This document shows, piece after piece, positions 27,138 to 35,912 of a stretch of DNA of 64,000 bases. Origin of the DNA: Synechococcus sp. PCC 7502 (GTDB taxonomy: Bacteria; Cyanobacteriota; Cyanobacteriia; Pseudanabaenales; Pseudanabaenaceae); NCBI RefSeq assembly GCF_000317085.1, contig NC_019702.1, positions 3,068,394 through 3,132,393 of the forward strand, read 5' to 3'. Positions within the stretch are counted from its first letter, which is position 1, and every line of letters begins with the position of its first letter. The notes under the pieces are model-generated. The model was given only the letters and a program-made list of their open reading frames with translations, did no database searches and was not told the DNA's origin. The position numbers and the translations under genes are program-made.

Positions 27138-27151
27138 ATTATTTAGAAAGT

Positions 27152-27174
27152 TTCAGTATAATACCTAGTTATGC
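27152..27174. repeat. TTCAGTATAATACCTAGTTATGC motif (22-bp repeat)
   Basis: Matches 33531-33553 at 20 of 23 positions. The second copy sits at the left boundary of the reverse-transcriptase cassette, so this copy may mark another recombination boundary. The GTTATGC end resembles a simple integrase site. Confidence 0.4.
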
Positions 27175-27401
27175 TCAATCGCGAAGCCCGTTGAAGTGAC
27201 TGACTTCTAGCCAAGATTAAGCAAGCAAAAATCTTCGACTTCGATGTTTAGTTCCGAGAAATTATTGGCGATCGCAAAGATAAAAAATTAATATGCGATC
27301 ATGCTATAAAACATCATTGGAGCGGTCTAGCTTCTAATACTTTGTTAGTAGTAAAAGTTCTTAGCTGCTCAATTTTGCCGTTATCACTCACAGGAATAGA
27401 G

Positions 27402-28307: not shown

Positions 28308-28676
28308 AATTTCGTAATTGCTCAACTGGGTGTGGTATGCTGAAATCTTTACCCAGAAAGGTGTCCAGAAAATCAAAAACTGCTATTTAAAATGAAGTAA
28401 ACGAAAGAATGAGGCTTTCAGTCATTTTAATAGTTAAAAACTCTGCTTGTAAAGATTTATCAGGCTTTTATACAATCTAGTCAACTTGTACTCTGGTCAA
28501 CCATGAACTTAAACAGAGACATATCAATCTAACTTGTAATTGCAGCGTAAATATCAATTGTCTATGGCTAAACTGTTTTATACATAGAGATGTTGTAGGT
28601 GGATTTCGTCGGTAAGCCAGAACATATATGACAAGCTATTTGCTTTTAAAGTAAAACATCTTGAGATCGATTAAAT
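28308..28676. other. Intergenic region, nothing recognised
   Basis: About 370 bp upstream of the aldo-keto reductase gene. It presumably contains the promoter of that gene. I see no coding frame or clear repeat. Confidence 0.35.
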
Positions 28677-28696
28677 TTTTTACAGGAGAACCGAGC

Positions 28697-29662
28697 ATGA
28701 AATATCGAAGACTGGGACGTTCTGGCTTACAAGTAAGTGAGTTATCCTTGGGGTCTTGGGTGACCTATGGAAATCAAGTGGATGAAAATGCGGCGATGGA
28801 AACGCTTTCTGCTGCCAGAGATGTCGGAGTAAATTTCTTTGACAATGCAGAAGTTTATGCTGGCGGTAAATCAGAAATACTTATGGGCAATGCCATCAAG
28901 CGACTTTGTTGGGATCGGGAATCCTACGTTATTTCTACCAAGTTCTACTGGGGAATTGCGGAAGGTCCGAACCGAAAGAACACTCTTAATCGTAAATATT
29001 TGCACCATGCGATCGATGGTTCTCTACAACGCTTACAACTGGACTATATTGACTTGGTCTTTTGCCATCGTCCCGATCCAAATACGCCAATTGAAGAGAC
29101 AGTCTGGGCAATGCACGACATGATCCATCAACGTAAAGCCCTATACTGGGGTACTTCGGAATGGTCAGCTGCGGAGATTGTAGAGGCTTAGCAGGTTGCC
29201 GATCGCCATCATCTTCATAAGCCAGTGATGGAGCAAGCCCAGTACAACTTGTTTCACCGTCATCGGGTAGAGAATGAGTACGCAAGACTATACGAGGATC
29301 TGGGCTTAGGGCTGACTACATGGAGTCCGCTTGCTTCTGGTGTGCTTACAGGCAAATATAGCAATGGGATACCTGCTGGGAGCCGTTCTACCTTGCCCGG
29401 CTATGCTTGGTTGCAGGAATCAGTCAGCAACCCCGACTGGATTGCAGCTACTGAGCGGTTACGACCAATTAGCGAAGAACTCGGCTGCACCTTATCACAA
29501 TTAGCGATCGCTTGGTGTGCCATTAATCCTAGGGTCAGTACAGTGATCACTGGTGCCAGTCGAACGGCTCAAGTAGTTGAGAATATGGGAGCGATCGACC
29601 TAATCCCTCGGCTTAACGCAGAACTACTGCAAAGAATTGAGAAGGCTGTGGGTAAAGTCTAA
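28697..29662 (+). pseudogene. Aldo-keto reductase with in-frame TAG
   Basis: The frame is continuous except for one in-frame TAG at 29189-29191 (after SAAEIVEA). The N-terminal part has [11 protein letters not shown] (Tyr), STKFYW (Lys) and FCHRPD (His) of the AKR catalytic tetrad. The part after the stop has the C-terminal cofactor region (TGASRTAQV). Intact, it would be ~321 residues of the YghZ/KCNAB-like branch, an NADPH-dependent carbonyl reductase. The stop probably replaces Trp (TGG), but readthrough or a sequence error cannot be excluded. Confidence 0.85.
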
Positions 29663-33427: not shown

Positions 33428-33530
33428 ATATGGGTGGCAGACAGAAATATTCTGGATATTTCACTAATTTGTTGCGTTAGCCAGAAAGCTTCAGTATATT
33501 TACACTGAACAAGGTAGTTATGCGGAGACT

Positions 33531-33553
33531 TTCAGCATAACACCTAGTTATAC
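33531..33553. repeat. Cassette-boundary-like 23-bp repeat
   Basis: Contains GCATAAC, a 5-bp ACCTA spacer and GTTATAC (33547-33553). GTTATAC is the exact inverse complement of GTATAAC at 35394, the outer arm of the attC-like site after the reverse-transcriptase gene. Upstream, GTTATGC (33517-33523) pairs with GCATAAC (33535-33541). Confidence 0.55.
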
Positions 33554-33624
33554 AGCCTTGGTTCCATACGAAGTAATTTTAGAATTACTCAGTTGTTGCT
33601 TGTGACCGTATGTAGGGATTGTAT

Positions 33625-35360
33625 ATGGCTCTAAAAATTAACACACCAAGATCTCGAGAACGAAGCATAACATTAGAAACCTGCTTTGAGATATCTCTAA
33701 TGAATAATGTTTGGCAAAAAATTGTTAAAGATGGAATGAGAAACCAATATCTACTTTGCCTCCATGATTATTATGATTTTCATAGAAATTATAAGGCTCT
33801 TAATCTAGTAATCAGAGAACAAATAATTCACCATCAATATAAACCTAAGCCCCCCAGCATAATTAGACTTGAAAAAAAGTATGGTGTATGTAGGCATATC
33901 CAAATTCCAGACCCAAGTGACGCAGTAGTTTTACAAACAATCGTCGAAAGTTTGAAAATTCATGTCATGGCAAATGCACCGGCGCCTACTAGAGCCTTTT
34001 ATAGTAGAAGCCATAGTAAGCCGAGGTCAGAAGCAGACATAGATGATACCTTTCCTTATGCATGGTGGGAATTATGGGGACAATTTCAAAAAAGGATTTA
34101 TGAATTTTCTAATATTTTTGATTATGTAGTTGTTACAGACATTGCCAATTACTTTGATACGGTTTCATTTGAACGTCATGGAAGCCCGATTACTTACCTT
34201 TGTCGGGCTTAGGCTTACCTCAAATTAACTTTGATGCACCTCGTCTTCTTGCCCATGCTTTTCTCTTTGAAATTGATACTTATTTGAACCATGAAACAAA
34301 AGGCAACTTTGTAAGATGGATGGATGATATTGATTTTGCAGTTCAAGACATTGGATCTGCAAAAAAAATCTTAAGGGGTTTAGATGAACTTCTCCTAACT
34401 AGGGGACTTAGGTTGAATTTGGGTAAAACAAAAATTTTATCCTCTGAGGAGGCAAAAAATTATTTTCTGCCAAATGAGAATAGATATTTAACTATTATGA
34501 CAAAAAGGGTTGATAGGCTCATTGATAGTGGTTTAGATATATCGGATGAAAAACAGAAAATACGAAGACGATTTAAGAAGTTTTTAAATCTTCCCCATAT
34601 AGGAAGATGGGAAAAAGTTTACAAAAGATACTTTACTCTTTCCACAAAAACCAAAGATACATTCTTGGAGTTTTATGTTCCCGAATTATTAGACAATAAC
34701 CCAGACCTTAGAGAAAATATTTTTCGATATTATGGAGGGCTAGGAATAAATAAAAAAAGATTTGAACATATACGTAATTTCATGAAAGAGCAAAACTGCC
34801 TCGATGATGTTGCTATATTTTCAGCAGCTAAGTTGCTCACCGATTGGACAGTTAGTTTTAAATCAAAGATCAAACGAGAAATGGTTGATTTAGCCGTTTC
34901 TATCGCAGGAATTTCTCCAGCACATTTAATATCAAGTATCTGGCTTTTATCTAAATATGGTACTTCTTCAGAATTGGTTTCAATTCTAGATACAACAAGT
35001 TATTTATGGAAGTATTCAAGTTTTTTGTCCAGACAAGTAGCTGCAACAATTCCTAAGATTCGAGACTTAAGAGGTGATATATTTGAGAAAATCTTTGCAG
35101 AAACCGGGCAATTAGATGCACTAAGAATTTTGTACAATCTAGATCAACTAAGATCAAAGCCTCTTTCAAAAGCAGAAATTTTGTACATAATGCATGGCTC
35201 TAAAAATGACTACTATCCTTTAAGCAAATTTATAATTACCCTTGATTTGTTAAGTTCTCCTCACATTGATCCCTCAATACGAAATAAGTTAAGAACAGAT
35301 CTCATTGTTAGAATCAAAGACCCAATTTATATTCAACAGATAAACCGAATACGCATCTAA
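33625..35360 (+). pseudogene. Reverse transcriptase of the defence (UG/Abi) type, broken in the core
   Basis: The N-terminal frame (33625-34212) reaches RT motif A as TDIANYFDTVS. A deletion with frameshift at ~34180 removes the segment before KPDYLPLSG, GLPQINFDA (motif B-like) and WMDDIDFAV (catalytic motif C). The second frame runs to 35360 with a ~260-residue helical C-terminal region without a maturase domain. That helical tail, the missing X/zinc domains and the cassette setting point to the unknown-group/abortive-infection RTs rather than a group II intron. The deletion makes it inactive as is. Confidence 0.7.
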
Positions 35361-35393
35361 TATAAATTAAAGTAAGTCTTGCTAAAACTGACT

Positions 35394-35480
35394 GTATAAC
35401 AATTCGGGTGCAGCGGATTGATCAAAGCTACTTGGGTTGAATGCAAAGATTTTAGCAACCGCTGACCCGAGCCGTTAGTC
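35394..35480 (+). other. attC-like integron recombination site
   Basis: Outer arm GTATAAC (35394-35400), then AATTCGGGTGCAGCGG, a ~42-nt variable loop, then CCGCTGACCCGAG and outer arm GTTAGTC (35474-35480), 87 bp in all. The inner arms are complementary with one unpaired G (GGGTGCAGCGG against GGGT-CAGCGG), the extrahelical base pattern typical of attC. The GTATAAC arm is the inverse complement of GTTATAC at 33547, as expected for the two ends of one cassette enclosing the reverse-transcriptase gene. Confidence 0.7.
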
Positions 35481-35507
35481 CGCATAGTAACTACGTCTCG
35501 AAACAAA

Positions 35508-35676
35508 ATGGAGTACGCCATTGGAGTCGCTGCTGCGATCGCAGTTTGACAGCGTGATTGGTTTTGACAAGGAGCGCAGCTTCTACCCAGTCGTGTTGAT
35601 AGTCATTGCTACCTTATACCTCCTATTTGCGGCGATCGCTGCGTTTGGGTTCCGGAAGAATGTACCAAAAAAGTAA
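35508..35676 (+). pseudogene. Small membrane-protein gene, frameshifted
   Basis: Starts MEYAIGVAAAIAV then shifts frame near 35549 and continues FDSVIGFDKERSFYPVVLIV, with two hydrophobic stretches. Together they resemble a short two-span cyanobacterial/proteobacterial membrane protein family of ~60 residues. It lies directly after the attC-like site, so it may be the first gene of the next cassette. Confidence 0.45.
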
Positions 35677-35912
35677 TTCTGAAAATCTGAGGCATTGTTA
35701 ATTTAGTGGTACTTTATTTTTTTGCCTGTCCCTTAGTGAAATGACAGGTAAATTCCCGCAAGCTAACAACCGCAATGCACTAGGATTTTGAAATATGCGT
35801 TTTTGTGAAGGGGTACTAGGCTACAACTTTAAGCTTATCAATTTGCAGCCAATAGCACTCAGCACAATTCATTCGATGGAATAATAGGTGAATGAGATCC
35901 CCCATCGACACC
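35677..35912. other. Intergenic region between attC-like site neighbourhood and TetR gene
   Basis: No gene recognised in this ~235 bp. It ends at the 3' end of the convergent TetR-type gene. Confidence 0.3.

What the first reader, a model, noticed from the sequence alone, without database searches (positions are those of the whole stretch)
33547..35480. Reverse transcriptase gene in an integron-like cassette with a convincing attC site
The 87-bp site at 35394-35480 has outer 7-mers, complementary inner arms of ~12 bp and a single unpaired G, all as in attC. Its outer arm GTATAAC is the exact inverse complement of GTTATAC at 33547, upstream of the RT gene, as expected of the two ends of one cassette. 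Integrons are rarely described in cyanobacteria, and an RT-bearing cassette would link integron capture with reverse-transcriptase defence.
Basis: partly seen in the sequence, partly recalled or inferred. Interest (0 to 1): 0.82.

Follow-up and report, generated by a model that had tools for sequence, protein, structure and literature searches.

The report
Decayed integron carrying a reverse-transcriptase cassette
In this cyanobacterium a gene-capture system (an integron) once picked up a probable anti-phage reverse-transcriptase gene; the capture sites on both sides are still readable, but the gene is now broken and the integrase gene in this genome is only a fragment.

Summary
An attC covariance model built only from relatives' cassette arrays, without this site, scores window 35394-35480 at 59 bits (E 9e-12). 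The genome holds 8 attC-like sites (E<0.01) and an internally deleted, IS-truncated intI with about 95% identity to relatives' IntI over its last 62 residues. 24 of 58 genomes in the relatives set carry full IntI.

Both cassette borders are confirmed independently. On the right, homology to another family's genome starts exactly at G|TTAG (35475), where there too an attC precedes it. On the left, the flank is an attI-type site made of the same palindromic repeats that sit beside intact intI genes in relatives. So 33548-35474 is a first cassette, behind an attI without intI.

Corrections: the RT is PADLOC family UG13a but a pseudogene here (about 28 codons deleted, frame broken), and integrons are already known in cyanobacteria.

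Additions: a UG13a RT lies in a probable two-cassette array of a Bacteriovoracaceae MAG. attI-like sites without intI are dispersed in this family, including a second one in the window; two relatives share such a locus with different cassettes.

The parts
33430..33553 (+). attI-type recombination site (type B): three imperfect GTTAGNCAGAAANTTTCNGNATAAN palindromic repeats and the core GCATAAC-ACCTA-G|TTATAC, with no intI beside it
   Evidence: Aligns at about 72% to attI-type sites in relatives and shares its repeats with attI next to intact intI; core pattern found 6 times in the own genome, 0 for the reversed control
33548..35474 (+). gene cassette, 1927 bp (TTATAC ... G), first cassette after attI
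   Evidence: 7/7 complement of G+TTATAC with R'' GTATAAC; left border equals the attI crossover, right border equals the attC crossover, each seen with other neighbours in other genomes
33625..35360 (+). UG13a reverse-transcriptase pseudogene: N part 33625-34209 (motif VVTDIANYFD), about 28-codon deletion with frame loss near 34180, C part 34200-35360 (catalytic RWMDD)
   Evidence: PADLOC RT_UG13a E 5e-66 and 8e-120; alignment with the intact G052, G020 and L108 homologues
35394..35480 (+). attC site (R'' 35394-35400, R' 35474-35480, one extrahelical G)
   Evidence: R1 covariance model 59 bits, E 9.4e-12; window site not in the training set
35475..35802 (+). remnant of a second cassette: small membrane-protein pseudogene (35508-35673, at least two deletions) and a degenerate attC remnant (about 35733-35802)
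   Evidence: 85% identity to cassette DNA in G049 starting at the junction and 86% over 70 bp of the remnant
27151..27174 (+). second attI-type core in the window (TTTCAGTATAATACCTA|GTTATGC)
   Evidence: pattern match, reversed control 0
27169..27386 (+). ORF-less cassette of about 212 bp ending in a degraded attC (27304-27386, 31 bits); similar in kind to the repeated non-coding cassettes next to attI in G026
   Evidence: R1 hit E 4e-5; sequence compared by eye with the attI-proximal cassettes

Best explanation
The feature is a decayed integron unit. An integron integrase (IntI) once recombined the folded bottom-strand attC of a circular cassette with the attI-type site ending at 33547 (cut G|TT). 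This placed a UG13a reverse-transcriptase gene as first cassette, upstream of an older cassette for a small membrane protein. The cassette gene was presumably expressed from a promoter at the attI side and, like other UG/DRT-type RTs, probably served phage defence by DNA synthesis. Since then the RT gene lost about 28 codons and its reading frame, the downstream cassette was also broken, no intI remains next to this attI, and the only clear intI trace in the genome is a fragment about 2 Mb away. Shown here: attC, attI-type site, cassette borders, RT family, gene decay, IntI remnant. Inferred: the recombination history, expression, and the defence function.
For: attC model trained on relatives hits the site at E 9e-12, and the training set shows covariation (27 double-change cells, shuffle mean 10.5). 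8 attC-like sites in the own genome at E<0.01. The IntI remnant joins residues 20-44 and 252-313; its C-terminal 62 residues are 95% identical to G028 IntI. 24 of 58 genomes searched have IntI over the curated cut-off. Right border: G049 homology begins at 35475 and follows an attC there. Left border: attI-type repeats as beside intact intI in 8 relatives' loci. Two UG13a halves with missing middle.
Against: No IntI stands next to this attI, and no intact copy was found in the genome, so activity cannot be ongoing from this genome's own integrase. The attI assignment rests on sequence similarity and position, not on a recombination assay. Two other cyanobacterial UG13a genes (G052, G020) are not in recognisable cassettes, so the RT is not tied to integrons. 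UG13a itself has no tested defence activity that I could find.
Confidence: 0.92

Rival explanations
1. The hairpin is an ordinary terminator-like or repeat hairpin that resembles attC by chance.
For: Hairpins of similar length occur elsewhere in these genomes (for example the L059 hits), and the fold of the bottom strand alone is only z -2.85.
Against: Independent covariance hit E 9e-12; cassette-end match 7/7; both borders are confirmed by unrelated neighbours in other genomes.
Confidence: 0.02
2. The RT came as a retroelement (group IIC intron or retron), not as a passive cassette; group IIC introns are known to target attC sites.
For: An RT gene next to an attC; group IIC introns associate with integrons (PMC7923331); the RT core matches intron maturases weakly.
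Against: No group II intron or retron RNA in Rfam over the window; the RT is UG13a by a wide margin; the ends lie at the G|TT crossovers of attI and attC, not inside an attC arm.
Confidence: 0.02
3. The cassette was inserted by IntI at a secondary chromosomal G|TT site rather than at a true attI.
For: No intI next to the site; secondary-site insertions are known for integron integrases (background knowledge, not tested here).
Against: The flank carries three IntI-type repeats and aligns over about 120 bp to attI-type sites that precede cassettes; a second cassette follows the RT cassette in array order.
Confidence: 0.06

Closest known systems
Integron gene cassettes and CALINs (attC arrays without integrase)
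   Same: attC fold, G|TT crossover, tandem same-orientation cassettes, decay after loss of intI
   Different: Short array still headed by an attI-type site, and several such sites are dispersed in one genome
Phage-defence cassettes in Vibrio chromosomal and mobile integrons (reviewed in PMC12409362)
   Same: A candidate defence gene carried as an integron cassette
   Different: Here an RT of the UG/DRT kind in a cyanobacterium, in a cassette of about 1.9 kb, and the gene is broken
UG13a reverse transcriptases (PADLOC RT_UG13a)
   Same: About 66-72% protein identity to an intact cyanobacterial homologue (G052) and 60-62% to a Bacteriovoracaceae one (L108)
   Different: Those copies are intact; the cyanobacterial ones (G052, G020) are not in cassettes, the Bacteriovoracaceae one appears to be
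Group IIC introns at attC sites
   Same: RT gene beside an attC
   Different: Wrong RT family, no ribozyme, different insertion point

Membership tests
Integron attC site | R''/R' boxes, L''/L' arms with extrahelical base, model hit | tested here: met
   59 bits, E 9.4e-12 with a model not containing the site
Integron gene cassette | Both ends at G|TT crossovers, own 5' end complementary to own R'' | tested here: met
   7/7 complement; both borders seen with other neighbours in other genomes
Complete integron | Intact intI adjacent to attI | tested here: not met
   Only an internally deleted remnant at C3:1020230; no intI in the window
CALIN | At least two attC within 4 kb of each other without intI | tested here: inconclusive
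   One sound attC plus one degenerate remnant within 0.4 kb; the next modelled attC is 8 kb away
attI site | IntI-type repeats and GTTRRRY-like crossover heading an array | tested here: met
   Same repeats and junction as beside intact intI
attI site | Binding and recombination by IntI | not testable with these tools
   Needs a recombination assay
UG13a reverse transcriptase | Best profile match, catalytic (Y/W)xDD | tested here: met
   E 5e-66 and 8e-120, RWMDD present
UG13a reverse transcriptase | Intact open frame | tested here: not met
   Internal deletion and frameshift
Group II intron | Ribozyme RNA around the RT | tested here: not met
   No Rfam hit in the window
Phage defence system | Protection against phage | not testable with these tools
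   Experiment needed

The most novel reading that the evidence does not exclude
In this cyanobacterial family attI sites are separate from intI, occur in several copies per genome, and act as dispersed docking slots that a trans-acting IntI fills with one or a few cassettes, some of them defence-type genes (RT, CHAT, GmrSD-like), so that capture is distributed over the chromosome rather than confined to one array.
Probability: 0.3. Interest if true: 0.75.

Novelty: new variant of a known kind. Interest (0 to 1): 0.52.

Why it matters
It gives a firm example of a DRT-type reverse transcriptase moved as an integron cassette, with a probable second case in another phylum, which extends integron-borne candidate defence genes beyond Vibrio and mobile integrons. 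The dispersed attI-type sites without intI, one of which sits at the same chromosomal place in two species with different cassettes, make a simple question testable: can an integrase load cassettes at several attI sites in trans?

Tried and rejected
Rfam over the window: no hits. First idea that the flanks form a hairpin target for secondary-site insertion: dropped once the left flank proved to be attI-type repeats. UG13a genes of G052 and G020 as cassettes: rejected, no attC model hit in the loci fetched around them. Viral contigs gave no UG13a relative; plasmids gave only relatives of 31-35% identity. An attempt to centre a genome search on the Bacteriovoracaceae MAG failed. The MAG has no IntI over the cut-off, and its attC-like sites score only modestly in my scan (0.3 chance hits per shuffle at that score or better); they are supported mainly by lying after both ORFs and sharing sequence. 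No literature on UG13 was found in the held library, and the UG/Abi paper I tried by DOI (from memory) is not held.

Full report
Checking the site. The 87-bp element is exactly as described: R'' GTATAAC at 35394, arms TCGGGT-G-CAGCGG and CCGCTGACCCGA, R' GTTAGTC at 35474. It folds better than nearly all shuffles on either strand. To test it independently I collected attC sites from the arrays next to intact intI genes in relatives and built a covariance model from 18 of them, leaving the window's site out. The training alignment shows real covariation. The model finds the window site at 59 bits, E 9.4e-12, and a second, degraded one at 27304-27386. In the whole genome there are 8 sites at E<0.01, mostly single and scattered. 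Of the 58 genomes searched, 53 have hits, some of them dozens.

Integrase. The genome has no intact integron integrase. It has a remnant at C3:1020230 in which residues about 20-44 and 252-313 of IntI are joined, next to IS debris; the last 62 residues are 95% identical to G028 IntI. 24 of 58 genomes have IntI above the curated cut-off. The window is cyanobacterial by its HIP1 content (54 GCGATCGC, 0.5 expected). Integrons in Cyanobacteria are already in the literature (PMC8352920 made a Cyanobacteria-specific attC model; PMC8618304; PMC2426708).

Cassette borders. A query made of the two flanks joined at the presumed crossover shows that the borders are real. Right: G049, of another family, matches from the first base after the crossover, and in G049 that sequence follows an attC and begins a cassette for a small membrane protein. 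In the window this second cassette is broken by deletions, and a 70-bp attC remnant follows at 35733-35802. Left: G031 and G029 match the flank. This flank is made of palindromic repeats around GAAANTTTC, the same that lie between intI and the first cassette in eight relatives' loci and end in TACATA|GTTRRRY. The window's version ends GCATAAC-ACCTA-G|TTATAC. So the left border is an attI-type site and the cassette is 33548-35474.

The RT. Both halves match PADLOC RT_UG13a far above all other families. Alignment with intact homologues (G052 66-72%, L108 60-62%, G020 40-44% identity) shows that about 28 residues before the SGxGLPQ motif are missing and the frame is lost; the catalytic RWMDD remains. 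The gene is a pseudogene. UG13a is rare: 2 of 386 genomes sampled across the phylum, plus G020 among the relatives. G052 and G020 carry it as a single gene outside recognisable cassettes. In a Bacteriovoracaceae MAG (L108) it is the first of two ORFs, each followed by a long attC-like element of shared sequence; this is probable, not proven, as a cassette array.

Orphan attI sites. A pattern of the attI core occurs 6 times in this genome (0 for the reversed control) and in 26 of 58 genomes, many of the places away from intI; among the attI-type loci fetched for this, tblastn finds intI pieces at only one (L146), and none in the window. In these loci the attC sites lie on the same strand as the core and downstream of it. 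A subtype with core CAGNATAAYNNYTAGTT, to which both window sites belong, occurs 7 times in 5 genomes of the family and in none of the loci fetched around intact intI. In G029 and G032 one such locus has 95% identity over 1.28 kb on the left and different cassettes on the right, so cassettes have been exchanged at that place. Genes behind orphan sites include CHAT, GmrSD-like and ankyrin-repeat proteins, but also ordinary ones such as a SnoaL-like protein. Two readings remain: repeated loss of intI from old integrons, which I find more likely, or attI sites used in trans.

Mechanism and verdict. The most likely history is capture of a circular UG13a cassette at attI by IntI via the folded attC bottom strand, expression from the attI side, then loss of the integrase and of the RT reading frame. 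Capture mechanism and defence role follow from what is established for integrons and DRT-type RTs; neither was tested here. Defence cassettes in integrons are known from Vibrio and mobile integrons (PMC12409362). I found no report of a UG/DRT RT cassette in the library I could search; that library lacks most subscription journals, so absence is weak evidence.

Noticed in passing
window 27151-27386: A second attI-type core followed by an ORF-less cassette of about 212 bp and a degraded attC; the same kind of non-coding cassette is tandemly repeated next to attI in G026 (L061) and first in other integrons.
   Followed up: partly
G000:C3:1020230 (L001, L056): intI remnant with internal deletion and IS debris on its N-terminal side.
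   Followed up: yes
L102 and L155: Same chromosomal locus in two species with an attI-type site lacking intI and different cassettes (CHAT protein versus an uncharacterised 248-aa protein).
   Followed up: partly
L143:3738-5495: GmrSD-type restriction endonuclease directly behind an attI core in G042, with no attC found after it.
   Followed up: no
L108: Bacteriovoracaceae MAG contig with UG13a RT and a second 183-aa ORF, each followed by a long attC-like element of about 175 bp sharing an internal sequence.
   Followed up: partly
window 28661-29662: Aldo/keto reductase gene appears split into two frames (28661-29191 and 29225-29662).
   Followed up: no
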